Source: Ornithinimicrobium tianjinense (GTDB lineage: Bacteria > Actinomycetota > Actinomycetes > Actinomycetales > Dermatophilaceae). Taken from it: a stretch of DNA of 64,000 nt. The position numbers were made by a program, and so were the translations under genes. Location of the stretch: NCBI RefSeq assembly GCF_014636495.1, contig NZ_BMEM01000002.1, positions 310,001 to 374,000 of the forward strand, read 5' to 3'. Under the pieces are notes generated by a model. That model was not told where the DNA came from, searched no databases, and saw only the letters and a program-made list of their open reading frames with translations. Position 1 is the first letter of the stretch. The number at the start of each line of letters is the position of its first letter. Of the stretch, positions 178 through 64,000 are shown one piece after another.

Positions 178-3100
178 GTGACCACGCAGCCGCACCAGGC
201 GGTCCTCGACCGCTTCTCTCCCGCCACGCGGGCGTGGTTCGACGCCTCCTTCCCCGGCCCCACTGCGGCCCAGGCCGGAGCGTGGGAGGCCATCAGCCGG
301 GGCGACCACACCCTCGTCGTGGCTCCCACCGGATCGGGCAAGACCCTCTCGGCGTTCCTGTGGGCGATCGACCGCATCGTCGCCACCCACGCGGAGCCGC
401 CGCAGCCGGCCGTCCGTGAGGACGGCAGCGAGCGCGGCCGCTGCCGCGTCCTCTACGTCTCCCCGCTCAAGGCCCTGGCCGTCGACGTCGAGCGCAACCT
501 CCGCTCCCCGCTCGTCGGCATCGGCCACGCCGCGACTCGCCTCGGTATGCCGTCGCCGCGCGTCTCGGTCGCGGTCCGCTCCGGCGACACCCCGGCAGCA
601 GACCGCCGGGCGTTCGCCCGGGACGGCGCCGAGATCCTCATCACGACGCCCGAGTCGCTCTTCCTGCTCCTCACCTCCCAGGCCCGCTCGGCGCTGACCG
701 GCGTCGAGTCGGTGATCGTCGACGAGGTCCACGCGGTCGCCGGCACCAAGCGCGGCGCCCACCTCGCCCTCACCCTCGACCGGCTCGACGCGCTCCTCGA
801 GCGGCCGGCCCAGCGGATCGGCCTGTCGGCGACCGTGCGTCCGGTCGAGGAGGTCGCGCGCTACCTCGCCGGCGGGCGGCCCGTGAGCATCGTCCAGCCG
901 GAGTCGACCAAGCGCTGGGACCTGCGCGTGGTCGTGCCGGTCCCCGACATGTCCGACCCCGGCGCGACCGAGCTGCCCGGGCCTGCCGCGGGCGGTGCCC
1001 CGACCGCACCCGCACAGCGGGCCACCGCGCAGGAGCGGGCGGCCCAGCCCGATGACTGGATGAGCGGCCCGGGCCCGGTGCTCCCCGACCTCGACGGCGA
1101 CGGGGACGGCGACGTCTGGGCGCCCGCCCCCGACCCCGAGGAACGCGCCTCGATCTGGCCGCACGTCGAGCGGCGCGTCGCCGACCTGATCACCGAGCAC
1201 ACCTCCACCCTCGTCTTCACCAACTCACGCCGGGTCGCCGAGCGCTTCACCGCACGGCTCAACGAGGACTGGGACGAGCGCCTCGAGGCGACCGGAGCCG
1301 ACTCGGACCGGGACGGGGACGAGGCCGGGTCCGGGGCGCCACGCCATACCGGAACGTCCCGCGCCCCCGCCCAGGTGATGGCGCAGTCCGGGGCCAGCCA
1401 GGGCGCCCCGCCGGCGCTCGCGCGCGCCCACCACGGGTCGGTGAGCAAGGAGCAGCGGGCGGTCATCGAGGACGCCCTCAAGACCGGGCAGCTGCCTGCC
1501 GTGGTCGCCACGAGCAGCCTCGAGCTCGGCATCGACATGGGAGCCGTCGACCTCGTCGTCCAGGTCGCCAGCCCGCCGAGCGTCGCCTCCGGGCTGCAGC
1601 GCGTCGGTCGTGCCGGCCACCAGGTGGGCGCGGTCAGCGCGGGCGTGTTCTTCCCGACCCACCGCGCCGACCTGGTCCAGACCGCGGTCGTCGTCGACCG
1701 CATGCGCGCCGGGATGATCGAGCAGCTGCACGTGCTCACCAACCCCCTCGACGTCCTCGCCCAGCAGGTCGTGGCCATGGTCGCGATGGAGGACTGGGCG
1801 GTCCCCGACCTCTTCGACCTGGTGCGGCGCAGCGCGAGCTTCGCCGCGCTCCCCCGGCCGCTGTTCGACGCGGTGCTCGACATGCTGGCGGGCCGCTACC
1901 CGGGCGAGGACTTCGCCGACCTGCGCCCACGGATCGAGTGGGACCGCGTGACCGACACCTTGACCGCCCGGCGCGGCGCCCAGCTGCTCGCCGTCACCTC
2001 CGGCGGCACGATCCCCGACCGCGGCCTGTATGCCGTGATGCTCGCGACCGGCGACGGCCCGGGCCGTCGGGTGGGTGAGCTGGACGAGGAGATGGTCTAC
2101 GAGTCGCGGGTCGGCGACGTCTTCACCCTCGGCACGACCAGCTGGCGGATCGAGGACATCACCCACGACCAGGTGCTGGTCACGCCGGCGCCGGGGCAGG
2201 TGGGCCGGTTGCCGTTCTGGAAGGGCGAGGCGCAGGGGCGCCCCGCCGAGCTGGGCGCGGCGGTCGGCGCGTTCGTGCGCGAGACCGCGGGTATGCCGCG
2301 CTCCGCCGCCCTGGAGTCGCTCACCGGCCGCGGCCTCGACCGCTGGGCGGCCGACAACCTCGTCACCTACCTGGAGGAGCAGCGCGAGGCGACGGTGCAC
2401 CTGCCGGACGACCGGACCGTCGTCGTCGAGCGCTTCCGCGACGAGATCGGCGACTGGCGGGTGGTGGTGCACTCGCCGTGGGGCCGCCCGGTGCACGGGC
2501 CGTGGGCGCTGTGCCTGGCGGCGCGGATGCGGGAGCGCTACGGGACCGACGTGCAGGCGCTGGCCGCGGACGACGGGATCGTGCTGCGGATGCCGGACCT
2601 CGGCGGCTGGGACGAGGACGGTCGCGGTAGCGGGGGCGCTGACACCCGGGAGGAGCAGGCTCGGCTCGACGCGGAGATCGTCGAGCTGCTGACGCTCGAC
2701 CCGGACGAGGTGGCCGACCTCGTCACCCAGGAGATCGGCGGGTCGGCGCTGTTCGCCTCGCGCTTCCGCGAGTGCGCCGCGCGGGCCCTGCTGCTGCCGC
2801 GGCGCAACCCGGGCAGGCGCCAGCCGCTCTGGCAGCAGCGGCAGCGCTCGGCACAGCTGCTGGAGGTCGCGGCGCGCTATCCCACCTTCCCGATCGTGCT
2901 CGAGGCGGTGCGCGAGTGCGTCCAGGACGTCTACGACGTGGACTCCCTCGTCGACCTGATGCGCGGGGTGGCCTCGCGCCAGGTGCGGGTCGTGTCGGTC
3001 GCCAGCGCCCAGCCCTCGCCGTTCGCCCGGTCCCTGCTCATGGGCTACATGGCCCAGTTCCTCTACGAGGGCGACTCTCCCCTGGCCGAGCGTCGCGCGG

Positions 3101-5121
3101 CGGCGCTGTCGCTCGACCCCGCCCTGCTGGCCGAGCTGCTTGGCCGCGGTGAGGGCGCCTCGCTCCGCGACCTGCTCGACCCCGAGGTCGTGGTCCGCAC
3201 GGAGGCCGAGCTGCAGCGCCTGACGCCCGAGCGGGCGGCGCGCGACACCCAGGACCTGCTCGACCTGCTGCGCGTCCTCGGCCCGCTCTCGACCGCCGAG
3301 CTCCGGGAGCGCACCCAGGAGGAGTCGCGCGGCCTGGTCGACGGCTGGCTCGACGAGCTCGCGGGAGCCCGCCGCGTCATCCCGGTGCGCGTCGGGGGCG
3401 ACGACCGGTGGGCGGACGCGCAGGACGCCGCCCGGCTGCGCGACGCGCTCGGCACCGCCATCCCCGTGGGCGTTCCCGCGGCCTACCTCGAGGGCGTCGA
3501 GGACCCGCTCGGCGACCTCGTGGTCCGCTACGCCCGGACCCACGGGCCGTTCACGCTGGAAGCACTGGCCGCTCGCCTGGGCCTGGGCGCGGCGGTCGTG
3601 CGCGACGCGACCCGCCGACTGGTGTCCACCGGCCGGATGGCCGAGGGCGCGCTCGTCCCGCACGGCACCGGCCACGACGACCTCTGCGACGCCGAGGTGC
3701 TGCGGCTCCTGCGCCGGCGCTCGCTCGCGGCCCTGCGCCAGGAGGTCGAGCCGGTCCCCCAGCGGACCTATGCCCGCTTCCTGCCGCGCTGGCAGGGCGC
3801 GACCGGTCTCGGCTCCGGCGAGGGTGAGCAGCTGCGCGGGGTCGACGGCGTCCTCCGGGCGGTCGAGCAGCTCGCCGGCGCCCGTCTGCCCGCCTCGTCC
3901 CTGGAGAGCCTGGTGCTCCCGGCTCGCGTGCGCGACTACTCCCCCGCGCTGCTCGACGAGCTCATGACCGGCGGCGAGGTGCTGTGGCAGGGCCACGGCA
4001 GCCTCCCCGGCGACGACGGCTGGGTCTCCCTCCACCTGGCGGACACGGCATACCTCACGCTGGCGGAGCCCGAGAGCGTCGAGGGCGAGCTGGCCGCGCG
4101 GGTGCGCGAGGTGCTCGAGCGCGTCCCCGGGGGCGCCTACCTGTTCCGCTCGCTCACCGACGCCCTCGGCCTGACCGACGACCAGGCCCTCAACGCCACG
4201 CTGTGGGACCTCGTATGGGCCGGGGCGCTCAGCGCCGACACCTTCGCGCCGGTGCGCGGCCTCCTGGGCGGCGGGCGCACGGCGCACCGGACCCGCCGGG
4301 CGCCGCGTGCCGGACGGTGGTCACGCACCTCGGTCGCCCTGGGGAGCCGCCCGTCCCGCCCCGCGATGCCCGTCCGCTCGGGGCCGCCGACCGCCGTCGG
4401 CCGGTGGGCGCTCCTGCCGCAGGTCGAGGTCGACCCGACGGTGCGGGGACTCGCGACGGCTGAGCAGCTGCTCGACCGCTACGGCGTGCTCACCCGCGGA
4501 TCCGTCGTCGCGGAGGGCATCCCCGGCGGGTATGCCGGCGTCTACCGGGTCCTCGCCGGTGCCGAGGAGGCGGGTCGGGTCCGTCGCGGGTATGTCGTGG
4601 AGGGTCTGGGCGCGGCGCAGTTCGGGACCGCGGGGGCGATCGACCGGTTGCGCGCGCTCGACGGCGAGGCGCGTGACCAGGCACCGCGGACGCCCGAGGT
4701 CGTGCTGCTGGCTGCCACCGACCCTGCGAACCCGTACGGCGCGAGCGTGCCCTGGCCGGACAGGGGCGTCGCCGCGGAGGGACGGACCGAGGGCGAGGAG
4801 GCGGGTGCAGGTGGCACCCACCGGCCGGGGCGCAAGGCCGGGTCGATGGTGGTGCTGGTCGATGGGCAGCTCGTTCTCTACCTCGAGCGCGGCGGTCGCA
4901 CGGCGCTGACCTACCCGGCGGCGTCGGCGGCCGAGCCCGAGGCGGTCTGGGACGCCGTCGCCGGAGCCCTCGTCGGGGCCGTCAGGTCCGGCGCCCTCGG
5001 CGGCCTCACGGTCACCAAGATCGACGGGGACCCGGCGCTCGGGTCGGCGGTCCCGCTGGCGACCGCGCTGGTCCGAGCCGGCTTCCACACGGCTCCCCAG
5101 GGTCTGCGCCTGCGCAGGTGA
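178..5121 (+). CDS. lhr: Lhr-type ATP-dependent DNA helicase
   Basis: Large superfamily 2 helicase of the Lhr family, 1647 residues from a GTG start; actinobacterial members are about 1500-1600. Visible motifs are Walker A APTGSGKT (49-56), DEVH (182-185), SAT (217-219), a motif V segment SSLELGIDMG and motif VI QRVGR (474-478), followed by the long Lhr C-terminal region. The family unwinds DNA or RNA-DNA hybrids by 3'-5' translocation and is linked to DNA repair; this role is inferred from family. Two low-complexity acidic or Ala/Gly/Pro inserts (roughly residues 262-325 and 372-415) sit between helicase motifs and look lineage-specific. The same strand carries nei2 1.5 kb downstream, a pairing also seen in Mycobacterium, which supports a repair role. 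Confidence 0.95.
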   Translation: MTTQPHQAVLDRFSPATRAWFDASFPGPTAAQAGAWEAISRGDHTLVVAPTGSGKTLSAFLWAIDRIVATHAEPPQPAVREDGSERGRCRVLYVSPLKALAVDVERNLRSPLVGIGHAATRLGMPSPRVSVAVRSGDTPAADRRAFARDGAEILITTPESLFLLLTSQARSALTGVESVIVDEVHAVAGTKRGAHLALTLDRLDALLERPAQRIGLSATVRPVEEVARYLAGGRPVSIVQPESTKRWDLRVVVPVPDMSDPGATELPGPAAGGAPTAPAQRATAQERAAQPDDWMSGPGPVLPDLDGDGDGDVWAPAPDPEERASIWPHVERRVADLITEHTSTLVFTNSRRVAERFTARLNEDWDERLEATGADSDRDGDEAGSGAPRHTGTSRAPAQVMAQSGASQGAPPALARAHHGSVSKEQRAVIEDALKTGQLPAVVATSSLELGIDMGAVDLVVQVASPPSVASGLQRVGRAGHQVGAVSAGVFFPTHRADLVQTAVVVDRMRAGMIEQLHVLTNPLDVLAQQVVAMVAMEDWAVPDLFDLVRRSASFAALPRPLFDAVLDMLAGRYPGEDFADLRPRIEWDRVTDTLTARRGAQLLAVTSGGTIPDRGLYAVMLATGDGPGRRVGELDEEMVYESRVGDVFTLGTTSWRIEDITHDQVLVTPAPGQVGRLPFWKGEAQGRPAELGAAVGAFVRETAGMPRSAALESLTGRGLDRWAADNLVTYLEEQREATVHLPDDRTVVVERFRDEIGDWRVVVHSPWGRPVHGPWALCLAARMRERYGTDVQALAADDGIVLRMPDLGGWDEDGRGSGGADTREEQARLDAEIVELLTLDPDEVADLVTQEIGGSALFASRFRECAARALLLPRRNPGRRQPLWQQRQRSAQLLEVAARYPTFPIVLEAVRECVQDVYDVDSLVDLMRGVASRQVRVVSVASAQPSPFARSLLMGYMAQFLYEGDSPLAERRAAALSLDPALLAELLGRGEGASLRDLLDPEVVVRTEAELQRLTPERAARDTQDLLDLLRVLGPLSTAELRERTQEESRGLVDGWLDELAGARRVIPVRVGGDDRWADAQDAARLRDALGTAIPVGVPAAYLEGVEDPLGDLVVRYARTHGPFTLEALAARLGLGAAVVRDATRRLVSTGRMAEGALVPHGTGHDDLCDAEVLRLLRRRSLAALRQEVEPVPQRTYARFLPRWQGATGLGSGEGEQLRGVDGVLRAVEQLAGARLPASSLESLVLPARVRDYSPALLDELMTGGEVLWQGHGSLPGDDGWVSLHLADTAYLTLAEPESVEGELAARVREVLERVPGGAYLFRSLTDALGLTDDQALNATLWDLVWAGALSADTFAPVRGLLGGGRTAHRTRRAPRAGRWSRTSVALGSRPSRPAMPVRSGPPTAVGRWALLPQVEVDPTVRGLATAEQLLDRYGVLTRGSVVAEGIPGGYAGVYRVLAGAEEAGRVRRGYVVEGLGAAQFGTAGAIDRLRALDGEARDQAPRTPEVVLLAATDPANPYGASVPWPDRGVAAEGRTEGEEAGAGGTHRPGRKAGSMVVLVDGQLVLYLERGGRTALTYPAASAAEPEAVWDAVAGALVGAVRSGALGGLTVTKIDGDPALGSAVPLATALVRAGFHTAPQGLRLRR

Positions 5122-5151
5122 TGGCCGCCACCGTCGGGCTCGCGTGATCGA

Positions 5152-6106
5152 ATGTCGCTCGTGCCAGCACCAGAGAGACCGACCACCGCCGCGCTGGCCG
5201 CCGTCGGCGCCGCCGCCCTGTGGGGCACCACCGGCACCGCCCAGGCCCTCGGGCCGGACGGCACGGACCCGGTGAGCGTCGGAGCCCTGCGGATCGCCGT
5301 GGGCGCTGTGGTGCTCGGCCTGCTCGCCGCTCGAGGTATGCCGCGACGCGCGGCGCAGGGCGATCCTCGCGTCCTCGGCGCGGGGACCGGGCGGCTCCCC
5401 GCCGGCGCCGTCCTCCTGCTGGGCGGCCTGTGCGTGGCGGCCTACCAGGCCTGCTTCTTCCTCGGGGTGGATCGCGCCGGGGTCGCCGTGGGCACGGTCG
5501 TCGCGCTCGGGGTGGCGCCGCTGGCGACGGGCGCTCTGGGGCTGCTCCTCGGCGAGCGCCTGACGCGCCGGTGGGGCGCGGCGACGGCCGGGGCTGTCGT
5601 CGGGGTCGTCCTCCTGGTCCTCGGCGCGGGGGGCGGCCGGGGCGGGCGTGGACCCGCTCGGCGTCGCCGGCGCTCTCGGTGCTGGCCTGTCCTACGCCGG
5701 CTACACCGTCACCGCGCGCACGCTGCTGCTCCGGGGCGCTCACGGCGTCACCGTGATGGCCGGGATGTTCGGCGTCGGAGCCATGGTCCTGCTCCCCGCG
5801 GTGGCCGGCGCGGACCTGGGCTGGGTGCTGAGCGCGCGCGGTGCGCTCATGGTCGCGTGGCTGGGCCTGGTGGCCACCGGTCTGTCGTACGTCCTGTTCC
5901 AGCACGGTCTGGCCGGGCTTCCCTCGAGCACCGTCGCGACGCTCTCGCTCGCCGAGCCGGTCACCGCGACCCTGCTCGGCGTGCTCGTGCTGGGCGAGGT
6001 GCTCGGCAGCCTCAGCGCGCTCGGGATCACGGTGGTCGTGCTGAGCCTGGCCGCCATGGCGCTGCCCGGTCGTCGGCCGCGGGCCGGGACTAGGGTCGCT
6101 CCATGA
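5152..6106 (+). pseudogene. EamA (DMT) family permease, broken by a one-base frameshift
   Basis: Reads as an EamA/RhaT-type metabolite permease of about 317 residues with ten hydrophobic segments, but in two frames. The 5' part (from ATG 5152, MSLVPAPERP) covers about five membrane helices. It then loses frame near 5628-5640, and the 3' part (GVDPLGVAGALGAGLSYAGY to [10 protein letters not shown]) continues in the next frame to a TGA at 6104-6106. Removing one G from the six-G run at 5628-5633 joins the halves seamlessly (LVLGAGAAGAGVDPLGVAG). The gene is therefore inactivated, phase-variable at a homopolymer, or affected by a sequencing error. The stop overlaps the next start (ATGA), so the two were probably translated together. 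Substrate is unknown. Confidence 0.8.
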
Positions 6107-8532: not shown

Positions 8533-9134
8533 CGCGCCGGCGCGGGCCGGGGTCCGAACGCCTGCCTCAGGTAGTCGACGCCGGTCACCACGGTGACGAC
8601 GAGCGCGGCATACATGATCCAGAGCCCGGCCGTCCCGACGACGCCGTCGAGCGGGGTGAGCATGAGGGTGAGGCCGACCGCCTGCAGGGCCGTCTTGAGC
8701 TTGCCGCCGCGGCTGGCCGGGATGACACCGCGCCGGATGACGACGAACCGCATCAGCGTGATGCCGATCTCGCGGACCAGGATGACGACGGTCACCCACC
8801 ACGGCAGCTCGCCGAGCAGGGACAGGCAGATCAGCGCCGAGCCCATCAGCGCCTTGTCGGCGATCGGGTCCATGAGCTTGCCGAACGCGGTGATCAGGCC
8901 GTTGCGGCGCGCGAGGTGCCCGTCGACCCAGTCGGTCGCGGTCGCCACGACGAACACGAGAGCGGCCCACCACCGGTCGGAGACGTCCTCGCCCGACTCC
9001 CGCATGAGCAGCCACACGAACAGCGGCACCATGAGCATGCGCAGCACGGTCAGTGCGTTGGGCAGGTTCCACGGGGAGGCCTGCGGCGCCTCCGGGGCGG
9101 TCGCGATGTCGGGGCCGTCGGGGTCGTGGATCAC
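8529..9134 (-). CDS. pgsA: CDP-diacylglycerol-glycerol-3-phosphate 3-phosphatidyltransferase family protein
   Basis: A 201-residue integral membrane CDP-alcohol phosphatidyltransferase. The complete signature D-x2-DG-x2-AR-x8-G-x3-D-x3-D is readable (DWVDGHLAR ... G ... D ... D), which is the catalytic and metal site. About five to six hydrophobic helices follow. The PgsA family makes phosphatidylglycerophosphate from CDP-DAG and glycerol-3-phosphate at the membrane. Actinobacteria carry several paralogues (PgsA1-3), so the exact acceptor alcohol is less certain than the family. It overlaps cinA by 4 bases and lies 1 base from rimO. Confidence 0.9.
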
Positions 9135-9135
9135 G

Positions 9136-10632
9136 TCAGTCCTCCTCGGGCGCCTCGTCGGCGCTCACCGGTATGGCGATCAGGTCGACCCCCTCGGTCG
9201 CGACGACCTCGGCGGTGACGATCGCGCCCGGGGCGAGTTGCGGCATACCCCCGTCCTCGTCGACGAGGTGGGTGACGCCGTCGACGTCCGGCCCCTGCTG
9301 CCCCGCGCGCCCCACGAGCCGGGGCTCCTCGTCGTCTCCGTCGTCCTCGACGCCCTCCACGAGCACCTCGACGAACGTGCCGATCCGTTCCTCGGCGCGC
9401 TGGGCGGTCAGCTCCTCGACGAGGGCGCTCACCCGCGCGACGCGCTCGGCGATCGTGGCCTCGTCGAGCTTGCCCTCGAAGCCCTCCGCCTCGGTGCCGT
9501 CCTCGTCGGAGTAGCCGAAGACGCCGACGACGTCGAGGCGGGCGGCCTCGAGGAAGGCGGTGAGCTCGGCGAGGTCCTCCTCGGTCTCCCCCGGGAAGCC
9601 GACGATGACGTTGGTGCGGATGCCGGCCTCCGGCAGCCGCTCGCGCACCTGGTCGAGCAGCGCCAGGAAGGAGGCGCGGTCGCCGAAGCGGCGCATCCGC
9701 CGCAACAGCGGGCCGCTCGCGTGCTGGAAGGAGATGTCGAAGTAGGGCACGACCCCCGGGGTGCGGGCCATCGCGTCGAGCAGGTCGGGACGGATCTCGG
9801 CCGGCTGCAGGTAGGAGACCCGCACGCGCTCGACGCCCTCGGTGGCCGCCAGCTGCGGGAGGAGGTTGTCGACGAGGCGCAGGTCGCCGAGGTCCTTGCC
9901 GTAGGAGGTGGTGTTCTCGCTGACGAGGAAGACCTCCTTGACTCCCCGCTCCCCCAGCCACGCGGCCTCGGCGAGGATCTCCTCCGGCCGCCGGGAGACG
10001 AAGCTGCCGCGGAACATCGGGATGGCGCAGAAGGCGCAGCGCCGGTCGCAGCCCGAGGCGATCTTCAGCGGCGCCCACGGGCGGTCGTCGAGCCGGGCAC
10101 GCACGACGCGCGGGCCGCTCGCCGGCGCGACCTGCGCCAGCTCGGCCTCCTCCGCGCGCTGCTGGTGGCCCGGCAGGGCGACGTGCTCGCTGGCGGTATG
10201 CCGTGCGGCCGGCGCGAGCGGGAGGAGCGTGCGACGGTCGCGCGGCACGTGGGAGGCGGTGGCCTCGCCGGCGAGGATGCGCTGGAGGTGACCGGACATG
10301 TCGGCGTAGGAGTCGAAGCCGAGCACGGCGTCGGCCTCGGGCAGCTCGGCCGCCAGCTGCTGGCCGTAGCGCTCGGCCATGCAACCGACCGCCACGACCT
10401 TCTGGGTGCGGCCGGTGCGCTTGAGGTCGTTGGCCTCCAGCAGCGCGTCGATGGAGTCCTTCTTGGCCTGCTCGACGAACCCGCAGGTGTTGACCACGGC
10501 CACGTCGGCCTCGCCGGCGTCGTCCACGAGGGTCCAGCCCTCGGCGGCCAGCCGGCCGGCCAGCTCCTCGGAGTCGACCTCGTTGCGGGTGCAGCCGAGG
10601 GTGACGACGGCGACGGAGCGGGTGGCGGGCAT
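9136..10632 (-). CDS. rimO: Ribosomal protein S12 methylthiotransferase RimO
   Basis: A 498-residue radical-SAM methylthiotransferase modifying Asp of ribosomal protein S12. The N-terminal UPF0004 domain has its three cluster cysteines C14 (LGCTRN), C50 (NTCG) and C84 (GCMAER). The radical-SAM CxxxCxxC is C195/C199/C202 (CDRRCAFC). A TRAM-like C-terminal domain follows. An insertion of roughly 45 residues between the two iron-sulfur domains (around 135-180) is rich in Ala/Glu/Arg; it contains the codons CGG-CAT-ACC that arise from the recurring genomic octamer. It is followed directly by pgsA. Confidence 0.93.
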
Positions 10633-10757: not shown

Positions 10758-13628
10758 TCAGTAGCGCTCGCGCCCGCCGCCACGGTCCGTGAGCTCCCAG
10801 GCGTCCTCGGACTCCTCCTCGCCCTCGTCCTCGACGTAGGTCCCGGAGACCGGGTCGCCGTCGTAGCGCGTGTTGCGCTGCGGGGCCACCGGCTCGGGCA
10901 CGGCATACCCCTCGCCCTCGTCGACGACCTCGGCGGCGTCGGCGTCGAAGGGCGCGGTGTCGGTCTCGACCTCCGGCCGGGGCGCGGGCTCCTGGCCCTG
11001 CAGGACGGCCAGCGTCTCCTCGAGGTCGTCCGGCCGGACCAGCACCTCGCGGGCCTTCGACCCCTCGGACGGACCGACGATGCCACGGCTCTCCATGAGG
11101 TCCATGAGACGGCCCGCCTTGGCGAAGCCGACGCGCAGCTTGCGCTGCAGCATCGACGTCGAGCCGAACTGCGTCGTGATGACCTGCTCGGCCGCCTGCA
11201 GCAGCAGGTCGAGGTCGTCGCCGATGTCCTCGTCGATCTGCTTCTTGGCCGGCGCCGCCGCGACCTCCTCGACGTAGGTCGGCTTGAGCTGCCCGGTGAC
11301 GTGGGCGACGACGTCGTGGATCTCCGACTCGCCCACCCAGGCGCCCTGGACGCGCATCGGCTTGCTCGCCCCCATCGGCAGGAAGAGCGCATCGCCCTGC
11401 CCGATGAGCTTCTCCGCGCCGGGCTGGTCGAGCACGACCCGGCTGTCCGCGAGGGAGGAGGTCGCGAACGCCATCCGCGACGGGACGTTGGCCTTGATCA
11501 GGCCGGTGACCACGTCGACCGACGGACGCTGGGTCGCGAGCACGAGGTGGATGCCGGCGGCGCGCGCCAGCTGGGTGATGCGCACGACCGACTCCTCGAC
11601 GTCGCGCGGGGCGACCATCATCAGGTCGGCGAGCTCGTCGACGACGACGAGCAGGTAGGGGTAGGGCTGCATGACGCGCTGCGACCCCGGGGGCGGCGTC
11701 ACCTTGCCGGCCTTGATCGCCTTGTTGAAGTCGTCGACATGCTTGTAGCCGAAGGCCGACAGGTCGTCGTAGCGCTGGTCCATCTCCTTGACCACCCAGG
11801 CCAGCGCCTCGGCGGCCTTCTTGGGGTTGGTGATGATCGGCGTGATGAGGTGCGGGATGCCCTCGTAGGCCGTCAGCTCCACCCGCTTGGGGTCGACGAG
11901 GATCATCCGCACCTCGTCCGGCGTCGAGCGCATGAGGATCGAGGTGATCATCGAGTTGACGAAGCTCGACTTGCCCGAGCCCGTCGCGCCGGCCACGAGC
12001 ATGTGCGGCATCTTGGCCAGGTTGGCGATGACGTAGCCGCCCTCCACGTCCTTGCCGACGCCCATGACCATCGGGTGCGTGTTGTTGCGCGCCGCCTGGC
12101 TGCGCAGCACGTCGCCGAGGTTGACGTTCTCGCGGTCGGTGTTGGGGATCTCCACGCCGACGGCGGACTTGCCGGGGATCGGCGAGAGGATGCGCACGTC
12201 GGCGGAGGCCACGGCATACGCGATGTTCTTGGAGAGCGCGGTGATCCGCTCGACCTTGACGCCGGGACCGAGCTCCACCTCGTAGCGGGTGACCGTCGGG
12301 CCACGCGTGAAGCCGGTGACCTGCGCGTCGATGTTGAAGTCCTCGAGCACACCGGTGAGCGCGTCGACCACCCGGTCGTTGGCCTCGGAGCGCTCCTTAT
12401 GGGGACTGCCGGGCTTGAGCAGGGCCGAGTCGGGCAGCGTGTAGGTGACGTCGCCGGCCAGCTGCAGCTGCTCGACCCGCTGCGGCAGCTGGGTGGTGGG
12501 CGGCGGCTCGAGCGGGGCCTTCTCGGCCTGGGCGGCGGCCTTGACCTTCTCGACCGCGCTCGGCGGGCTCGGGCGCTTCTGCCCGGGCCGCAGCGCCGGG
12601 ATCTCCTCGGTCGCGTCGCCGGCGGGCACGTCCGCCAGTCCGGTGCCCCGGGTATGCCGTGCCGCCCCACCCTTGGTGGGCGCCGGCACCTCGCCGGTGG
12701 CGTCCACGTCATACACCTCGGCGTCGCGGGAGCGACGGGCACCGGCGCGCAGCGAGCGCCCGCCCTTGCCCCGCTCGACCTCGGCGGCCTGCTCGAAGGC
12801 GACGTCGCCGTCGCGCTCGTCGAGGTCCGCGCGGGCCCGGCGACGCCGGGGCAGGACCTCGCCGGTGACCGGGTCGACGTCGTCGAAGCGGGCGGAGTCG
12901 AAGAGGTGCTGCTCGAGCTCGCGGAGCCGGTCCGGGATGCGGTGCACCGGGGTGCGCGTGAGGACGAGGAAGCCGAAGACGCCCAGCACGGAGAGCACGA
13001 CGTAGGCGCCGGTCGCGGTGATCGCGGCCGAGAGCATGGCCGAGAGGATGAAGCCCAGGATGCCGCCGCTGCCCTCGAGGGCGTGGGCACCCTCGGCGTA
13101 GTCCGGGGCGCCGGTGGCCAGGTGGGTGATGCCCGAGGCCGACAGCAGCATGGCCATCGTGCCGATCGACATCCGGTTGGTGGCCTGGCCCTCGGTGGGC
13201 TTGCGGAAGTTGCGGATCGCGAAGAACAGCAGGACGAGGGGCAGGACGAGGGCCACCCGGCCGAAGGTGCCGGCGGCGACCGAGTGGACGATGTCGCCGA
13301 AGAGCCCGTCCAGCTGCCACCACTCGCGCAGCGCGACGATGACGGCCAGCACGAGCAGCAGGAAGCCCGCACCGTCGCGGCGGTGCTCGGGCTCGAGGTC
13401 GTGGGCCGCGTCGCTCATCGCGCGGACCGTGCCACCGGCGGCGCCGGCGATGCCGCGGTAGGCCTTGCCCGGCAGGGAGCCGCCGGGGCGCGGCTCGGGA
13501 GCGCGCCCGCCGCGGGACCGGGACGCGCCCGAGCCGGAGCCCGAGCGCCCCGACGAGGGTCTCGCGCTCGAGCCGGCGCGCGGCCCGCTGCTGCGGGGGC
13601 GGCTGGAGGAGGTCACAGACTTGGCCAC
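10758..13628 (-). CDS. ftsK: DNA translocase FtsK/SpoIIIE
   Basis: A 956-residue septal DNA pump. It has a short basic N-terminus and about four membrane helices (roughly residues 85-190), then a Pro/Ala/Glu-rich linker (about 210-400). The RecA-like motor follows, with Walker [10 protein letters not shown] near residue 545 and Walker [10 protein letters not shown]. The C-terminal winged-helix gamma domain ([20 protein letters not shown]) reads orienting sequences on DNA. GTG start at 13626-13628 gives a basic N-terminus ([15 protein letters not shown]). FtsK clears chromosome ends from the division septum and activates XerCD at dif. It heads the rimO-pgsA-cinA-clgR series. Confidence 0.95.
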
Positions 13629-18090: not shown

Positions 18091-18150
18091 GGGACGAGCG
18101 TAGGCGAGGCCACCCACGGACCCGCCCGGGAGGCCATTACGCTCGGGCGG

Positions 18151-28817: not shown

Positions 28818-28883
28818 TGCGACGCGGAGCGCGCCTGCCCCGGTGCGCGTGCACGGCATACCCCTGCCGTTAGTGTGTCCCCC

Positions 28884-33169: not shown

Positions 33170-33180
33170 GGAGCTCCGGT

Positions 33181-45467: not shown

Positions 45468-45548
45468 CCCGTCACTGTATGCCGTCGCGCCGGGCTCCCC
45501 GCGCGGCTCCTCGGGTGCACGGCCGGGGACCGGGGTAGCCTGCCCGCC

Positions 45549-47475: not shown

Positions 47476-47528
47476 GGCCCGATCCTAGGCAGGCGGGCCC
47501 CGCCCTCGGCCGCCCTAGACTCGGGGGT

Positions 47529-48296
47529 ATGCCGAACACGTACGCGCCGGGCAGCGCCCTGACCGTCCAGGACGTCGCCGATCTCATCGACCACGCCCTG
47601 CTCAAGCCCGAGCTGACGCCGCAGGAGGTCGAGGTGTCCTGCCGCGAGCTCGCGCGGGAGGAGATCTGGTCGGTGTGCGTGCGGCCGTCGGACGTCTCGC
47701 TGGCCCTGACCGCGGTCGAGGGCCACAGGACCCAGGTCTGCACGGTCATCGGCTTCCCGCACGGCACGACGTCCACGGCGGCCAAGGTCGCCGAGGCGCG
47801 GCAGGCCCTGGCCGACGGCGCGACCGAGCTGGACATGGTGCTGAACATCGGCCGGCTGCGCGGAGGCGACGTGGACGCGGTGCGCGAGGACATCGCGGCC
47901 GTCGTCGAGGTCGGCCACGCCGAGGGCCGGATCGTCAAGGTCATCTTCGAGACCGCCCTGCTGGACGAGGCGCAGAAGGTCGCCGCCTGCCGCGCCAGCG
48001 AGGAGGCGGGAGCCGACTTCGTCAAGACCTCGACCGGCTTCGCCGGCGGTGGCGCGACCCTGCCGGACGTGCGGCTGATGCGCGCGAACACCGGGCCGCA
48101 GGTGCAGGTGAAGGCCTCCGGCGGCGTGCGCGACATCGACACGCTGCTCGCGATGTGCGCCGAGGGCGTCACCCGCATCGGCACGTCCTCGACCGCTGCG
48201 CTGCTCGCCGGCGCCCGTGAGCGCGAGGCCGCAGGGACGCTCGTCGTCCCGCAGCCGGGCGCCGACGTCGCCGGCGCCGACGGCCAGGGCTACTGA
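47529..48296 (+). CDS. deoC: Deoxyribose-phosphate aldolase
   Basis: A 255-residue class I aldolase splitting 2-deoxyribose-5-phosphate into glyceraldehyde-3-phosphate and acetaldehyde. The Schiff-base Lys166 lies in FVKTSTGF; VCTVIGFPHG, ELDMVLNIG, VKVIFETALL and VKASGGVRD (second catalytic Lys) are all conserved. A C-terminal extension (TLVVPQPGADVAGADGQGY) goes beyond the barrel. ATG 47529 is itself part of a GTATGCCG octamer. The stop lies just before a 22-bp tandem array. Confidence 0.95.
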   Translation: MPNTYAPGSALTVQDVADLIDHALLKPELTPQEVEVSCRELAREEIWSVCVRPSDVSLALTAVEGHRTQVCTVIGFPHGTTSTAAKVAEARQALADGATELDMVLNIGRLRGGDVDAVREDIAAVVEVGHAEGRIVKVIFETALLDEAQKVAACRASEEAGADFVKTSTGFAGGGATLPDVRLMRANTGPQVQVKASGGVRDIDTLLAMCAEGVTRIGTSSTAALLAGAREREAAGTLVVPQPGADVAGADGQGY

Positions 48297-48470: not shown

Positions 48471-49760
48471 TCAGGCGATCCGGTCGATGACCACCTGCGC
48501 GGGGGCCTCCACCTCGGAGGCTGAGCCCACGGCATACCCGCCCTCGAGCGCCTCGAGCGCCCGGGCGAACCGGTCCGGCTCGTCCGTGTGCAGCGTGAGC
48601 AGCGGCTGACCCGCGCGGACGGGGTCACCCGGCTTGGCGTGCATCTGCACCCCGGCCGCGGCCTGCACCGGGTCCTCCTTGCGGGCCCGGCCGGCACCCA
48701 GGCGCCACGCCGCGACGCCCACGGCGAGCGCGTCCAGCCTGGTGAGCACACCGTCGGCCGGTGCGGTGACGACGTGGGTGTCCTTGGCGACGGGGAGCGG
48801 GGCGTCCGGGTCGCCGCCCTGGGCGGCGATCATCCGGCGCCACACGTCCATGGCCCGGCCGTCGGCGAGCGCGTCGGCGGGGTCGACGTCCCCACGGCCC
48901 GCCCCAGCGAGCATCTCGCGAGCCAGCGCCAGGGTGAGCTCGACGACGTCAGCCGGGCCGCCGCCGGCCAGCACCTCGACCGACTCCTGCACCTCCAGCC
49001 CGTTGCCCGCGGTGAGCCCGAGCGGAGTCGACATGTCGGTGAGCAGGGCGACGGTGTGCACGCCCGCGTCGGTGCCGAGCTCGACCATGGTGCGGGCCAG
49101 CTCGCTGGCGTCCGCCTGGGTCTTCATGAACGCACCCGACCCGACCTTGACGTCGAGGACGAGCACCCCGGTCCCCTCGGCGATCTTCTTGCTCATGATC
49201 GAGGAGGCGATGAGCGGGATCGCCTCGACGGTGCCGGTGACGTCGCGCAGGGAGTAGAGCCGCTTGTCCGCCGGCGCCAGCCCCGAGCCCGCCGCGCAGA
49301 TCACCGCGCCGACGTCCTCCAGCTGCGCGAACATCTCCTCGTTGGACAGCGCGGCGCGCCAGCCCGGCACCGCCTCCAGCTTGTCGAGGGTGCCGCCCGT
49401 GTGGCCCAGCCCGCGCCCCGACAGCTGCGGCACCGCCACCCCGCAGGCCGCGACGAGGGGGGCGAGCGGCAGGGTGATCTTATCGCCGACACCGCCGGTC
49501 GAGTGCTTGTCGGCGGTCGGGCGCGAGAGGCCGGAGAAGTCCATCCGCTCGCCCGAGGCGATCATCGCCGCGGTCCAGTCGCCGATCTCGCGGCGGTTCA
49601 TGCCGTTGAGCAGGATCGCCATCGCCAGCGCGGACATCTGCTCGTCCGCCACGACCTCGCGGGTGTAGGCGTCGACCACCCAGGCGATCTGCTCGGGGCT
49701 CAGCTCGCCCCGGTCACGCTTGGTCCGGATGATGTCGACGGCGTCGAAGGACTCACTCAT
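48471..49760 (-). CDS. deoA: Thymidine phosphorylase
   Basis: A 429-residue pyrimidine nucleoside phosphorylase from ATG 49758-49760 (MSESFDAVDIIRTKRDRGEL). The phosphate-binding signature TADKHSTGGVGDK and the segments LSGRGLGHTGGTLDKLEA and VGSGAFMKT are present. It converts thymidine or deoxyuridine plus phosphate to base and deoxyribose-1-phosphate, feeding the phosphopentomutase-DeoC route. It is convergent with deoC across the 22-bp array. Confidence 0.95.
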   Translation of the reverse strand: MSESFDAVDIIRTKRDRGELSPEQIAWVVDAYTREVVADEQMSALAMAILLNGMNRREIGDWTAAMIASGERMDFSGLSRPTADKHSTGGVGDKITLPLAPLVAACGVAVPQLSGRGLGHTGGTLDKLEAVPGWRAALSNEEMFAQLEDVGAVICAAGSGLAPADKRLYSLRDVTGTVEAIPLIASSIMSKKIAEGTGVLVLDVKVGSGAFMKTQADASELARTMVELGTDAGVHTVALLTDMSTPLGLTAGNGLEVQESVEVLAGGGPADVVELTLALAREMLAGAGRGDVDPADALADGRAMDVWRRMIAAQGGDPDAPLPVAKDTHVVTAPADGVLTRLDALAVGVAAWRLGAGRARKEDPVQAAAGVQMHAKPGDPVRAGQPLLTLHTDEPDRFARALEALEGGYAVGSASEVEAPAQVVIDRIA

Positions 49761-49807
49761 GGGACCAGTCTCGCGCATCGCCTGCGACCTGCGGGTATGC
49801 CGTCCCG

Positions 49808-50467: not shown

Positions 50468-51127
50468 GTGCTCATCGCTGACATCATGACGCTCGTCGTT
50501 CCTCCCGTGACCGAACTGCTGCGCCGCTCGCGCACCGGGGATGGGACGGCAGGGGCGCAGCCGATGTTCCCCACCATCATCGCAATCCGCAACGAGCGTG
50601 TCGTGGCCGCGGTCTCCACCCCTCGGATGGCGGCCACCCTCAGCTGCGCCCAGACGCTGGCCGTCGGGCTGGGCGCCGAGGCCCTCGTCCTGGCGGCGGA
50701 GGCTGAGCTGGACGGCACGCCGGCGCTCACCTACTCGGTGATGACGCGGGAGCGCCACGCCAAGTACGTCCTGCAGGAGATCACCGGCGAGGGCGCAGCG
50801 ACCCGCTTCTCGGTGCCCGTGGACGGCGGCGACCCCGCGAACGGCGGCATCCTCGCGGCCCTCGCCGCCGGTCTCTCTCAGCGGCCGATTCACGTCACGC
50901 AGGTGGCGCGCACGGGGTCGGACACCAGCGGCACCTTCGGCGACGCGCCGTTCCTCCCGGCCGAGCAGGGCCGCGTCGTGGTGGACGCCGGGACGGTCCG
51001 CACGCTCCAGGAGCGGGTGCAGGGCATCGGCGGACGCGCGGTCTACATCGCCCGGTCGCCCGAGGCGGCCCAGCTCGCCCTCGATGCCGGTATGCCGCGC
51101 GCCTGCCTGGTCAACACGCTCGCCTGA
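50468..51127 (+). CDS. Hypothetical protein of unknown family
   Basis: About 219 residues from GTG 50468, or 213 from ATG 50486 (MTLVVPPVTELLRRSRTG). No signal peptide or membrane helix is seen. The sequence is a balanced alpha/beta mix (AAVSTPRMAATLSCAQTLAVGLGAEALVLAAEAEL; YVLQEITGEGAATRFSVPV). I recognise no motif. It is divergent from the gene at 49808. The last 18 bases of the gene, including its stop, are duplicated 83 bases downstream in a repeat region. Confidence 0.7.
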   Translation: MLIADIMTLVVPPVTELLRRSRTGDGTAGAQPMFPTIIAIRNERVVAAVSTPRMAATLSCAQTLAVGLGAEALVLAAEAELDGTPALTYSVMTRERHAKYVLQEITGEGAATRFSVPVDGGDPANGGILAALAAGLSQRPIHVTQVARTGSDTSGTFGDAPFLPAEQGRVVVDAGTVRTLQERVQGIGGRAVYIARSPEAAQLALDAGMPRACLVNTLA

Positions 51128-54451: not shown

Positions 54452-56127
<1,676 letters not shown>

Positions 56128-57485: not shown

Positions 57486-57509
57486 AAAGGTGACGAATTC
57501 GTGACCTTT
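57486..57509. promoter_or_regulatory. 24-bp palindrome upstream of bmpA, probable operator
   Basis: Half-sites AAAGGTGACGAA and TTCGTGACCTTT form a 24-bp palindrome with one mismatched pair, AT-rich in the middle (GAATTC). It lies about 90-113 bases upstream of the bmpA start, in the spacer after the amidohydrolase gene and above the likely promoter. It fits a dimeric repressor or activator of the nucleoside import operon. Confidence 0.65.
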
Positions 57510-57514
57510 GCCGG

Positions 57515-58777: not shown

Positions 58778-58909
58778 GTCTTCTTCGCTACGGATCGGCG
58801 GTCATGGGTAGGCCGCGCCCGGATCAGGTCACTCCAGGTCGAGACAGGGCCCGGAACCCACGACGCGGCGCGGCGTTCGTCCCAGGGTACATCCGTGGCG
58901 GTACCCTCC

Positions 58910-60493
<1,584 letters not shown>

Positions 60494-60502
60494 GCCCGCA
60501 GA

Positions 60503-61615
60503 CTACCGCCGGGCGGTGGCCTCCACCGCGGCGCCCACCAGCCCCGGACCGGCGTAGACGAGCCCCGTGTAGAGCTGCACCAGGCTGGCGCCGGCGTCGA
60601 GCAGCGCCCGGGCGTCCTCGCCGCTCATGACCCCACCGACCCCGATGACCGGCAGGTCCGTGCGGGAGGCGACGTGGGCGACGACCTCGCGCGCCCGCAT
60701 CGTGAGCGGCGCCCCCGAGAGGCCGCCGGCCTCGCTCTGCGCCGTCAGCGCGTCGACGCGGTGCACCCCCTCGCGGGACAGCGTCGTGTTGGTCGCGATG
60801 ACGCCAGACACCCCGGCCCCGACGGCGACCTCCAGCGCCTCGTCGAGCGCGTGGTCGGTGAGGTCGGGGGCCAGCTTGACCAGCACGGGCGTCGCCCCCG
60901 CGGCCGTGACCACGGCGCCGAGCAGCTCGGCCAGCGGACCGGCGTCCTGCAGGGAGCGCAGCCCGGGGGTGTTGGGGCTGGAGACGTTGACCGCCAGGTA
61001 GTCCGCCAGACCCTCGAGCGCCGCGACCGACTCGAGGTAGTCCCCCACGGCATCCTCGACCGGCGTGACCTTGCTCTTGCCGATGCTCACGCCCACCGGG
61101 ATGCGGACGAGTCCCGCCTCACGCGCGGCCCGGAGGCGGTCGGCGAGGGCGTGGACCCCCTGGTTGTTGAAGCCCATGCGGTTGATGACGGCGCGGCTGC
61201 GCGGCAGCCGGACCAGGCGCGGGCGCGGGTTGCCCGGCTGGGGCCTGGCCGTGACCGTCCCCAGCTCGACGTGCCCGAAGCCGAGGGCTCCCCAGCTCGC
61301 GAGCCCACGGCCGTCCTTGTCCATGCCCGCGGCGAGACCCACGCGGTGCGGGAAGCGCAGCCCGAGCACCTCCACGGGGTCGGGCTCGACCGCCGGGCCC
61401 ACGGCATACCCGGCCAGGCTCGTGAGCGCGCGCGTCACCGGGACGCGTCCGAGCAGGTCGGCCGCGACCACGGTGCCGTGGTGCGCGGTCTCGGCGTCGA
61501 GGCGCCACAGGAGGGGGCGGGCGAGGCGCGCGTATGCCGCGTCGGCAGCCAGGCGGGCTACCCGCCTCGTCGCCGGTGCGGCTGGCCTGGGGGTGGGCGC
61601 GGGAGCGGACGTCAT
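60503..61615 (-). CDS. pyrD: Dihydroorotate dehydrogenase (quinone), class 2
   Basis: A 370-residue membrane-associated FMN enzyme of pyrimidine synthesis. It has the N-terminal amphipathic helix region of class 2 (about 25-45), then [50 protein letters not shown] (catalytic Ser), LVKLAPDL, and GGLSGAPL / [13 protein letters not shown] for FMN phosphate. It passes electrons to the quinone pool. Start ATG 61613-61615, divergent from the GDP-mannose gene. Confidence 0.94.
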
Positions 61616-61650
61616 GGGTCAACCCTAAGAGGCTCCATACACTGAACCGC

Positions 61651-62757: not shown

Positions 62758-62903
62758 GCCATCCCCCAGGAGCGCACCGCGGGCGGCCGTCGTCGACGGG
62801 ACGTCTGCGCGATGCCATCGGTCATCCACTCGTCACCCGCCGATCACCCGACACACCCCCGGATGTCGCCGCCGACACACCGGCTCCCGCGAGGCTGGAG
62901 CAC

Positions 62904-64000
62904 GTGAGGGTCGCCATCGTCACCGAGTCCTTCCTGCCCGCGCTCAACGGCGTGACCACGAGCGTGTGCAAGGTGCTGGAGTCGCTGCGCGCCCAGGGCC
63001 ATGACGCACTGGTCATCGCCCCCGGCACCAGCCCGTGGAGCCCGACCATGACCCCGGAGCACTACGCAGGCTTCCCGGTGCACAGCGTGACGAGCGTGCC
63101 GGTGCGCCAGTTCCGGGTGGGCCTGCCCTCCTACGAGATCGAGACGGTGCTCCACCGCTTCCGGCCGGACGTCATGCACGTCGCCTCCCCCTTCGTGCTG
63201 GGGGTGCGGGGCCTGACCGCGGCGCGCGCGCTCGGCATACCGTCCGTGGCCATCTACCAGACGGACATGCCGTCCTACATCCGGCAGCACTCGGGGCCGG
63301 CCGGCGACCTGACGGCGCGGGCGGCCTGGCGCTGGATCCGGCGCATCCACCAGCAGGCAGACCTCACCCTCGCTCCCTCCAGCGCGGCGCTGCAGGACCT
63401 CGCCGCCCACGACGTCCCCCGGATCGCCCAGTGGGGCCGGGGCGTGGACTCCGACCTCTTCCACCCCGCCCGCCGCACGGACCCCGGCACCGCTGCGCTC
63501 CGGGCCCGGCTCGCCCCCCGCGGAGAGACGCTGCTGGGCTACGTGGGCCGGCTGGCCCCGGAGAAGGAGCTGCACCGACTCGTCGAGCTGGCCAGGGTGC
63601 CCGGCACCCGGCTCGTCCTCGTCGGCGAGGGTCCCAGCAGCGAGATGCTCGCCGCCAGCCTCCCCGGCGCCGTCTTCCTGGGTCGTCGCGAGGGCGAGGA
63701 CCTGGCCCGGGCGTATGCCGCTTTCGACGTCTTCGTGCACACCGGCACCCGCGAGACCTTCGGGCAGACCATCCAGGAGGCGGCCGCGGCCGGCCTCCCG
63801 GTGGTCGCGCCCGCGCGCGGCGGTCCGCTCGACCTCGTCGAGGTCGGGGTCACCGGCGACCTCTTCGACCCCGACCGGCCGGGCGACCTGGCCGCCAAGG
63901 TGGCGCCGCTCGTCGGCCCCGAGGCGGCCGAGCTGCGCGAGCGGATGGGGCTCGCGGCGCGCGACCGGGTGGTGACGCGCTCCTGGCCCGCGCTGGTCGA
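62904..64000 (+). CDS. GT4 family glycosyltransferase, probable GDP-mannose-dependent mannosyltransferase (5' part)
   Basis: From GTG 62904 (RVAIVTESFLPALNGVTTSV; GGAG at 62897-62900 upstream) an open frame runs without a stop off the right edge, giving 365 residues. The N-terminal GT-B domain has the donor/acceptor loop ESFLPALNGVT and PDVMHVASPFVLGVRG, and the C-terminal domain has VGRLAPEKEL, VFVHTGTRETFGQTIQEA (the EX7E-type block) and AARGGPLDLV-like APARGGPLDLV. This resembles the MgtA/PimB/PimC alpha-mannosyltransferases of actinobacteria. GDP-mannose from the preceding gene is the likely donor. The C-terminal end is missing. Confidence 0.9.
   Translation, partial: MRVAIVTESFLPALNGVTTSVCKVLESLRAQGHDALVIAPGTSPWSPTMTPEHYAGFPVHSVTSVPVRQFRVGLPSYEIETVLHRFRPDVMHVASPFVLGVRGLTAARALGIPSVAIYQTDMPSYIRQHSGPAGDLTARAAWRWIRRIHQQADLTLAPSSAALQDLAAHDVPRIAQWGRGVDSDLFHPARRTDPGTAALRARLAPRGETLLGYVGRLAPEKELHRLVELARVPGTRLVLVGEGPSSEMLAASLPGAVFLGRREGEDLARAYAAFDVFVHTGTRETFGQTIQEAAAAGLPVVAPARGGPLDLVEVGVTGDLFDPDRPGDLAAKVAPLVGPEAAELRERMGLAARDRVVTRSWPALV

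What the first reader, a model, noticed from the sequence alone, without database searches (positions are those of the whole stretch)
545..63720. Octamer GTATGCCG / CGGCATAC is about 20-fold over-represented
By hand I count 43 copies (24 as GTATGCCG, 19 as CGGCATAC). If GC is about 72% and bases independent, about 2 would be expected on both strands. Evidence it is a DNA-level signal: (1) it occurs in different reading frames (Tyr-Ala, Met-Pro, Arg-His-Thr, Ala-Tyr, Gly-Ile-Pro) and in spacers (28854, 49795); (2) it forces rare codons (ATA Ile before Pro, GCA Ala, TAT Tyr); (3) it often sits in variable protein parts, where the same chance-like ARHT/PRHT peptide appears in Lhr, RimO, FtsK and DUF58; (4) two copies contain start codons (phosphomutase, deoC). 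The two orientations are balanced, as with DNA-uptake signals or HIP1-type repeats. I know of no described actinobacterial equivalent.
Basis: partly seen in the sequence, partly recalled or inferred. Interest (0 to 1): 0.85.

Follow-up and report, generated by a model that had tools for sequence, protein, structure and literature searches.

The report
Family-wide repeated DNA recognition word
An eight-letter DNA word is repeated hundreds to thousands of times on both strands in many members of one bacterial family, with one-letter spelling dialects and, in several genomes, an avoidance of nearby copies facing the same way; it looks like a tag for recognising DNA of the bacterium's own kind, but its function has not been tested.

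Summary
GTATGCCG occurs 43 times in the window against 0.93 expected, and 1758 times in the 3.3 Mb genome against 29 for the reversed word. It exceeds a synonymous-codon shuffle in all six coding phases. Half of the TAT codons in the 464 kb sample lie inside it (100 of 200).

It is abundant in 83 of 149 sampled genomes of one actinobacterial family that includes Phycicoccus and Janibacter, and scarce (0 to 167 copies) in 184 genomes of 19 other families of the order. Further family members carry one-letter dialects, GGATGCCG or GTACGCCG, with up to 4480 and 4185 copies.

New here: copies within about 1.5 kb avoid the same orientation but not the opposite one, in the own genome, G097, G056 and 13 pooled loci; not in G089, G131 or G070. 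E. coli Chi shows no such avoidance. RecC is missing in 57 of 83 motif-rich genomes, so RecBCD is not the general reader.

Best reading: a self-DNA (uptake-type) recognition word spread by recombination, with a strand-sensitive reader. No reader and no uptake bias was shown.

The parts
545..552 (+). GTATGCCG copy (in lhr-type helicase gene)
2028..2035 (+). GTATGCCG copy (in lhr-type helicase gene)
2291..2298 (+). GTATGCCG copy (in lhr-type helicase gene)
4046..4053 (-). GTATGCCG copy (in lhr-type helicase gene, antisense)
4530..4537 (+). GTATGCCG copy (in lhr-type helicase gene)
5336..5343 (+). GTATGCCG copy
8606..8613 (-). GTATGCCG copy (in pgsA)
9241..9248 (-). GTATGCCG copy (in rimO)
10196..10203 (+). 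GTATGCCG copy (in rimO, antisense)
10901..10908 (-). GTATGCCG copy (in ftsK-like gene)
12212..12219 (-). GTATGCCG copy (in ftsK-like gene)
12652..12659 (+). GTATGCCG copy (in ftsK-like gene, antisense)
18519..18526 (+). GTATGCCG copy
19545..19552 (+). GTATGCCG copy
23015..23022 (-). GTATGCCG copy
25613..25620 (-). GTATGCCG copy
27051..27058 (+). GTATGCCG copy
28854..28861 (-). GTATGCCG copy (outside called genes)
30121..30128 (+). GTATGCCG copy (in biotin carboxylase-like gene)
31281..31288 (-). GTATGCCG copy
33179..33186 (+). GTATGCCG copy
33470..33477 (-). GTATGCCG copy
37050..37057 (+). GTATGCCG copy; left arm of a convergent pair with 37089
37089..37096 (-). GTATGCCG copy; right arm of a convergent pair with 37050
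38150..38157 (+). GTATGCCG copy
38976..38983 (-). GTATGCCG copy
41208..41215 (-). GTATGCCG copy
43361..43368 (-). GTATGCCG copy; inverted pair with 43376, 7 bases between
43376..43383 (+). GTATGCCG copy; inverted pair with 43361
43577..43584 (-). GTATGCCG copy
45477..45484 (+). GTATGCCG copy
46196..46203 (+). GTATGCCG copy
47364..47371 (-). GTATGCCG copy
47527..47534 (+). GTATGCCG copy; holds the probable ATG of deoC
48530..48537 (-). GTATGCCG copy
49795..49802 (+). GTATGCCG copy (outside called genes)
51090..51097 (+). GTATGCCG copy
54534..54541 (+). GTATGCCG copy
60028..60035 (+). GTATGCCG copy (in methylmalonyl-CoA mutase-like gene, antisense)
61402..61409 (-). GTATGCCG copy
61532..61539 (+). 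GTATGCCG copy
63233..63240 (-). GTATGCCG copy
63713..63720 (+). GTATGCCG copy

Best explanation
GTATGCCG (in this genome extended to G-GTATGCCG-(T/C)-G; letter 6 is the only clearly tolerant position) is a self-recognition word for DNA exchange, working like the DNA uptake sequences of Neisseriaceae and the USS of Pasteurellaceae. Shown: extreme excess in all frames and outside genes, both strands, family-limited range, one-letter dialects, losses, close inverted pairs, and same-orientation exclusion in some genomes. Inferred: an unidentified reader in natural transformation (DNA capture by a Tad-type pilus and ComEA, entry through ComEC) favours DNA that carries the word. Each recombination then copies the word into cells that lost it, so copies accumulate by molecular drive until protein constraint stops them.
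For: Genome count 1758 against 29 for the reversed word. Coding excess 223 against 19.1, all six phases. The neighbour GTACGCCG is depleted in the own sample, 12 against 60, as expected if such sites were converted. Density per kb is 0.875 outside and 0.533 inside called genes. Pairs closer than 60 bp over three genomes: convergent 22, divergent 15, each against about 9.4 expected; same orientation 3 against about 18.8. 83 of 149 family genomes rich; 184 genomes of 19 other families hold 0 to 167 copies. Dialects genome-wide: GGATGCCG 3949 (control 289) in G056, 4480 (262) in G131; GTACGCCG 4185 (207) in G130, 3903 (310) in G070; mixed genomes G074 and G108. Within-genus loss: G009, 50 copies. 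Strand balance, no replichore skew detected. Same-orientation pairs at 60-1500 bp: O/E 0.53 own, 0.57 G097, 0.53 G056, 0.72 in 13 loci; opposite pairs in these four sets 1.08-1.17. Own genome, neighbours 60-1500 bp apart: 39 of 137 (0.285) share orientation; 197 control 8-mers have mean 0.532, minimum 0.354. ComEA and ComEC found in 20 of 20 rich loci.
Against: No reader, uptake bias or competence was shown for any member. ComEC, ComEA and the T2SSE-family ATPases (which include TadA) do not separate rich from poor genomes, and a complete Tad cluster was not verified. Published uptake in H. influenzae does not depend on motif orientation (PMC1939737, passages), whereas the exclusion here does. 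The exclusion is missing in G089 (0.95), G131 (1.01) and G070 (0.89); in the 13 pooled loci it ends at about 1 kb; in 27 genus loci, many orthologous to each other, neighbour orientation is 79 same to 100 opposite, p = 0.13. 'Scarce in acquired DNA' is only weakly touched: the two poorest of 40 stretches carry transposase genes but have GC within the range of their genomes.
Confidence: 0.55

Rival explanations
1. An intracellular iterated motif of the HIP1 kind: a site for a chromosome-structure, repair or methylation protein, kept by selection on each genome, with no role in DNA uptake.
For: HIP1 of cyanobacteria has a similar density (one per 1131 bp in Synechocystis) and several suggested functions (PMC6604393, passages). 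The com genes and T2SSE-family ATPases do not separate rich from poor genomes here.
Against: The word is not a palindrome and holds no GATC core. Dialect differences of one letter within single genera, mixed genomes and losses fit a changing recognition partner under drive better than a needed structural site. Site-by-site conservation is at background (0.289 against 0.310; 11 sites).
Confidence: 0.22
2. A Chi-like recombination regulator read by an end-resecting helicase-nuclease, most likely AdnAB, travelling along DNA and reading one orientation.
For: Orientation-specific exclusion over 1-1.5 kb points to a directional reader. [quoted passage not shown] AdnAB presence in these genomes was not tested.
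Against: RecC is absent in 57 of 83 motif-rich genomes and present in 34 of 66 others, so RecBCD is not the general reader. No replication-strand bias detected (best-phase fraction 0.548 and 0.533, p = 0.31 and 0.76), whereas E. coli Chi is 74% leading-strand (72 of 97) and shows no same-orientation exclusion (32 pairs below 1500 bp against 21.3 expected, 400 kb).
Confidence: 0.13
3. A by-product of codon or dicodon preference, peptide repeats or mutation bias.
For: 45% of the coding copies in the own sample are in one phase (100 of 223, the Tyr-Ala phase).
Against: All six phases exceed the synonymous-shuffle expectation and sequence outside called genes is denser than genes; the excess exists in one family only among those sampled in the order. 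A mutation bias gives no reason for orientation-specific exclusion.
Confidence: 0.02

Closest known systems
DNA uptake sequences (DUS) of Neisseriaceae
   Same: Thousands of copies, family-limited, several dialects, at least one genome with two dialects (PMC3630211, passages; compared).
   Different: Different word, phylum and cell envelope. 218 of 266 copies lie in called genes here, against 35% in N. gonorrhoeae (PMC1939737, passage). The PilM marker of type IVa pili is nearly absent (5 of 149); no ComP-like reader known; uptake bias not tested.
Uptake signal sequences (USS) of Pasteurellaceae
   Different: USS action is reported as independent of orientation (PMC1939737, passages); here nearby copies avoid the same orientation in several genomes. 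The same statistic was not run on a USS genome.
HIP1 of cyanobacteria
   Same: Octamer at about one per 1.1 kb (PMC6604393, passages).
   Different: HIP1 is palindromic with a methylated CGATCG core; this word is not palindromic and has no such core.
Chi sites (RecBCD/AddAB)
   Same: Octamer (E. coli), many copies, possibly direction-sensitive.
   Different: No strand skew, opposite pair statistics, and no positive link to RecC.
Tad/Flp-pilus natural transformation of Micrococcus luteus
   Same: ComEA/ComEC with tad genes and no other T4P genes, in an actinobacterium (PMC4322843, passages); here ComEA/ComEC and T2SSE-family ATPases present, PilM mostly absent.
   Different: The term 'uptake sequence' does not occur in that paper's main text; a full tad cluster was not verified here.

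Membership tests
DUS/USS uptake sequences | Short word with hundreds to thousands of copies, far above codon-aware expectation | tested here: met
DUS/USS uptake sequences | Both orientations equal, no bias to replication strand | tested here: met
   two chromosomes
DUS/USS uptake sequences | Found in genes and denser in non-coding DNA; some close inverted pairs | tested here: met
   (own gene calls)
DUS/USS uptake sequences | Lineage-limited, with dialects | tested here: met
DUS/USS uptake sequences | Scarce in newly acquired DNA | tested here: inconclusive
   Only the 2 poorest of 40 stretches were examined; both carry transposase genes, GC not unusual
DUS/USS uptake sequences | DNA uptake genes present | tested here: met
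   ComEC 145 of 149; ComEA beside ComEC in 20 of 20 rich and 19 of 20 poor loci; T2SSE-family ATPase 148 of 149. Not discriminating
DUS/USS uptake sequences | Reader is a minor pilin of a type IVa pilus (ComP; ComN predicted) | tested here: not met
   By proxy: PilM_2 in 5 of 149 genomes, not in G000. ComN seen only as an abstract in a listing
DUS/USS uptake sequences | Biased uptake of DNA carrying the word | not testable with these tools
   needs transformation assays
Chi (RecBCD) | Reader RecBCD present | tested here: not met
   RecC absent in 57 of 83 motif-rich genomes; present in G000
Chi (RecBCD) | Oriented with replication | tested here: not met
   E. coli Chi 72 of 97 leading
Chi-like for AdnAB | AdnAB altered by the word | not testable with these tools
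   biochemistry; AdnAB presence not searched
HIP1 | Palindromic GCGATCGC with methylated core | tested here: not met
   word GTATGCCG; methylation itself not testable

The most novel reading that the evidence does not exclude
The word is a strand-read self-DNA tag of an actinobacterial transformation system: it is read on one strand as DNA enters or is processed, so each strand carries its own set of tags about 1 to 1.5 kb apart. One-letter dialect changes within the family mark shifts of an unknown reader and partition gene exchange among genera. As far as my searches show, this would be the first uptake-type vocabulary in monoderm bacteria, and the first with strand-resolved spacing.
Probability: 0.3. 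Interest if true: 0.93.

Novelty: new variant of a known kind. Interest (0 to 1): 0.85.

Why it matters
If it is an uptake-type word, sequence-specific bacterial DNA exchange arose independently in a high-GC Gram-positive family, with natural replicates: rich, lost, switched and mixed genomes across many genera. If it is instead read by AdnAB, it would bear on whether that enzyme class responds to a Chi sequence.

Tried and rejected
Rejected: simple codon effect; RecBCD Chi as general reader; replication-polarity element such as KOPS or Chi; spread through the order (no). Led nowhere: ComEC, ComEA and T2SSE ATPases as predictors of the motif; site-by-site conservation (11 sites; 5 genes dropped for too few orthologs); naming the genus of the window (the genome-contig scan, capped at 80 loci, gave Phycicoccus and Janibacter as nearest); a USS benchmark. 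Not done: structure prediction; a test of AdnAB presence; a check of com genes in the loss genome G009; verification of a full tad cluster.

Limits. Genes were called with my own codon-usage script, which makes errors (in one search it called 17269-19092, which differs). The codon shuffle does not keep dicodons. The expected pair counts assume uniform density. The threshold for 'rich' (at least 100 per Mb and 2.4 times the control) was mine, and borderline genomes are listed there. The two other dialects were scored by a second criterion of mine, at least 1000 copies and five times the control, on rows picked by eye and rechecked; G031 and G158 (GGATGCCG 1336 and 1210, 4.3 times the control) fall just short. 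In one search the own locus is printed under the 'poor' label by a script slip; it is not in the 20 + 20 counts. The control count (2 of 199) was the motif itself and an overlapping octamer; one search corrects it.
Full report
OBSERVATION. The window is G000:C2:310001-374000. The whole genome (3,309,481 bp, 12 contigs) holds 872 + 886 copies; the word read backwards occurs 29 times. In 464 kb of it, the octamer occurs 266 times against 7.1 expected from an order-2 model, and the 10-mer GGTATGCCGT 114 times against 0.47.

DNA-LEVEL SIGNAL. Shuffling synonymous codons within genes gives 19.1 copies where 223 are seen, and each of the six phase/orientation classes is in excess (15/1.1, 20/3.3, 100/8.2, 20/2.4, 40/2.8, 28/3.0). 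DNA outside called genes is denser (0.875 against 0.533 per kb; 48 and 218 copies). Of 24 one-letter variants in the own sample, the clear excess is at letter 6 (GTATG[AGT]CG: 27, 39, 27 against 5.5, 9.7, 5.5), and GTACGCCG is depleted, 12 against 60. In this sample 100 of 200 TAT and 28 of 68 ATA codons sit inside the word. Flanks in this genome: G before (78%), T (50%) or C (29%) after, then G (55%); G097 and G089 favour C after and G next.

RANGE. In the genus, 30 of 31 genomes hold 394 to 1901 copies and one, G009, holds 50; 89.5 kb of G009 contains none and no enriched one-letter variant. In the family sample of 149 genomes and 53 genera, densities are bimodal; 83 genomes are rich by my threshold, up to 4724 copies in G037. 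In 184 genomes of 19 other families of the order there are 0 to 167 copies, mostly one to three and a half times the reversed control. The family is identified through named loci: L013 (Phycicoccus sp. Root101) lies in a genome with 727/741 copies and control 36/46, the same as G142 of the family, and L014 (Janibacter terrae) in one with 16/6 and 8/5, the same as G144. NCBI places both genera in Intrasporangiaceae; the GTDB name Dermatophilaceae is recalled. The genus of the window itself was not named.

DIALECTS. Several poor genomes use a word one letter away. GGATGCCG: G056 3949 copies (control 289), G046 3816 (392), G093 3838 (439), G131 4480 (262), G145 3619 (206), G074 2195 (207), G108 2099 (200); G031 and G158 are intermediate, 1336 (310) and 1210 (280). 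G074 and G108 also hold 1217 and 1189 GTATGCCG, while G131 and G145 of the same genus hold 361 and 288, so one genus shows mixed and mostly switched genomes. GTACGCCG: G130 4185 (207), G070 3903 (310), G077 2618 (161), G134 2529 (243), G109 2366 (155), G053 2216 (143), G106 2111 (148), G098 1463 (114), G054 1359 (167), G083 1125 (171). Genus g26 is split: G055 and G124 use GTATGCCG (1062 and 3681) while G098 uses GTACGCCG. G033 uses GTATGNCG. Codon shuffles and phase counts support GGATGCCG in G056 (54 against 11.3) and GTACGCCG in G070 (48 against 9.6); support in G054 is weaker (22 against 8.6). Counting the 83 plus genomes with at least 1000 copies and five times the control of a second word, 98 of 149 have at least one dialect. 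The remaining poor genomes that I sampled (20 kb each, 60 kb for G151) showed no clear one-letter variant, apart from GGATGCCG 10 against 2.9 in G031 and 11 against 4.7 in G151; such small samples do not exclude other words.

ARRANGEMENT. Neighbouring copies in the own genome are 85 same to 160 opposite in orientation, p = 1.9e-6. The pair statistics show exclusion of same-orientation copies more than attraction of opposite ones: at 60-1500 bp the observed/expected ratio for same orientation is 0.53 in the own genome (p = 7e-8), 0.57 in G097 (2e-10), 0.53 in G056 with its own dialect (3e-4) and 0.72 in 13 family loci (0.004), while opposite pairs are at 1.08 to 1.17. It is absent in G089 (0.95), G131 (1.01) and G070 (0.89), ends near 1 kb in the 13 loci, and is not significant in 27 genus loci (79:100, p = 0.13), many of which are orthologous to each other. 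None of 197 other octamers of similar frequency in the own genome shares orientation as rarely between neighbours 60-1500 bp apart (0.285 against a mean of 0.532 and a minimum of 0.354); in G097 it is 0.290 against a minimum of 0.426 in 12 controls, in G089 0.434 against 0.464 in 5. Over 83 rich genomes the strand counts are more even than coin tossing (sd of z 0.79; chi-square lower tail about 0.003 from rounded values). Pairs closer than 60 bp are mostly inverted: 22 convergent and 15 divergent against about 9.4 each, 3 same-way against about 18.8, as with the USS hairpin pairs (PMC7811141, passage). No replichore bias was detected in two single-contig chromosomes.

WHAT READS IT. The genome has a ComEA-ComEC operon (L093:9246-12870, minus strand). 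ComEC passes the Pfam cut-off and the NCBIfam N-terminal-domain cut-off but is just under the full-length one (187.2 against 190.05), and ComEA is under both NCBIfam cut-offs. ComEC is in 145 of 149 family genomes, a T2SSE-family ATPase (the family of TadA) in 148 of 149, ComEA beside ComEC in 20 of 20 rich and 19 of 20 poor loci. So uptake genes are present but do not predict the word. PilM, a marker of type IVa pili, is in 5 of 149. In Micrococcus luteus transformation depends on tad genes and ComEA/ComEC, and no other T4P genes were found there (PMC4322843, passages), so a Tad-based system is plausible here, not shown. RecC is in 26 of 83 rich and 34 of 66 other genomes, which rules out RecBCD as the general reader.

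CHI BENCHMARK. In 400 kb of E. coli K-12, Chi (97 copies) is 74% leading-strand and has 32 same-orientation pairs below 1500 bp against 21.3 expected. The present word differs in both respects.

MECHANISM. Molecular drive needs only biased uptake plus recombination, and is said to produce abundance and a relatively even distribution, with uptake sequences scarce in newly acquired segments (PMC7811141, passages). In orientation-blind drive a second copy on the same fragment is redundant whatever its orientation (my inference). The data show redundancy only for the same orientation, in some genomes. I therefore infer a strand- or direction-sensitive reader acting on about 1 to 1.5 kb. A partial precedent: in N. 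gonorrhoeae single-stranded DNA with the Crick strand of the DUS shows some transforming ability relative to the Watson strand, although double-stranded recognition dominates (PMC12061091, passage). In published H. influenzae data uptake is independent of orientation (PMC1939737, passages), which counts against a simple copy of that system. An AdnAB Chi-like function remains possible; whether AdnAB responds to Chi was not known in 2016 (PMC4824097, passage).

SITE TURNOVER. In orthologous genes of 20 genus genomes, own sites are identical in 41 of 142 comparisons (0.289) against 0.310 for octamers matched by phase and AT content (11 sites). So the density is conserved and the individual places are not more conserved than their surroundings. 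This fits a genome-wide tag better than local regulatory sites, on a small sample.

ACQUIRED DNA. Of 40 stretches of G089 and G097, the two poorest (2 copies each) carry Mu-type or Mutator transposase genes. Their GC (0.672, 0.673) is within the range of their genomes (0.671-0.704 and 0.671-0.701), and the other 38 were not scanned for mobile genes, so this is only a hint.

LITERATURE. In the listings of searches I saw no actinobacterial uptake word. These are titles and abstract beginnings; some searches listed 15 of 643, 12 of 147, 8 of 63 and 8 of 43 papers. The library holds open-access papers only. Of the papers cited I saw passages, none in full.

Noticed in passing
all copies; extended word GGTATGCCGTG: The extended word shares ATGCCGT with the 5' part of the Neisseria DUS (ATGCCGTCTGAA as given). 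Probably chance; the Neisseria core required for transformation lies elsewhere as I recall.
   Followed up: no
   Followed up: partly
G074, G108, G131, G145 (one genus): Two dialects coexist in different proportions, as if genomes were caught while switching words.
   Followed up: partly
L200, L224: The two motif-poorest of 40 chromosome stretches in G089 and G097 carry transposase genes (Mu-type, Mutator) beside helicase or glycosyltransferase genes; possibly acquired islands, but GC is not unusual.
   Followed up: partly
L146 (G068, same genus label as the Janibacter terrae genome): GAAGGGGG occurs 11 times in 20 kb against 1.06 expected; a local repeat or another word, not checked.
   Followed up: no
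L102:1684-1718: A long inverted repeat built around two copies of the word outside called genes, terminator-like.
   Followed up: no
window 178-5121: An Lhr-type ATP-dependent helicase (NF007284, above its cut-off) of 1647 aa carries five copies of the word; one is present at the same place in 7 of 9 aligned genus relatives.
   Followed up: partly
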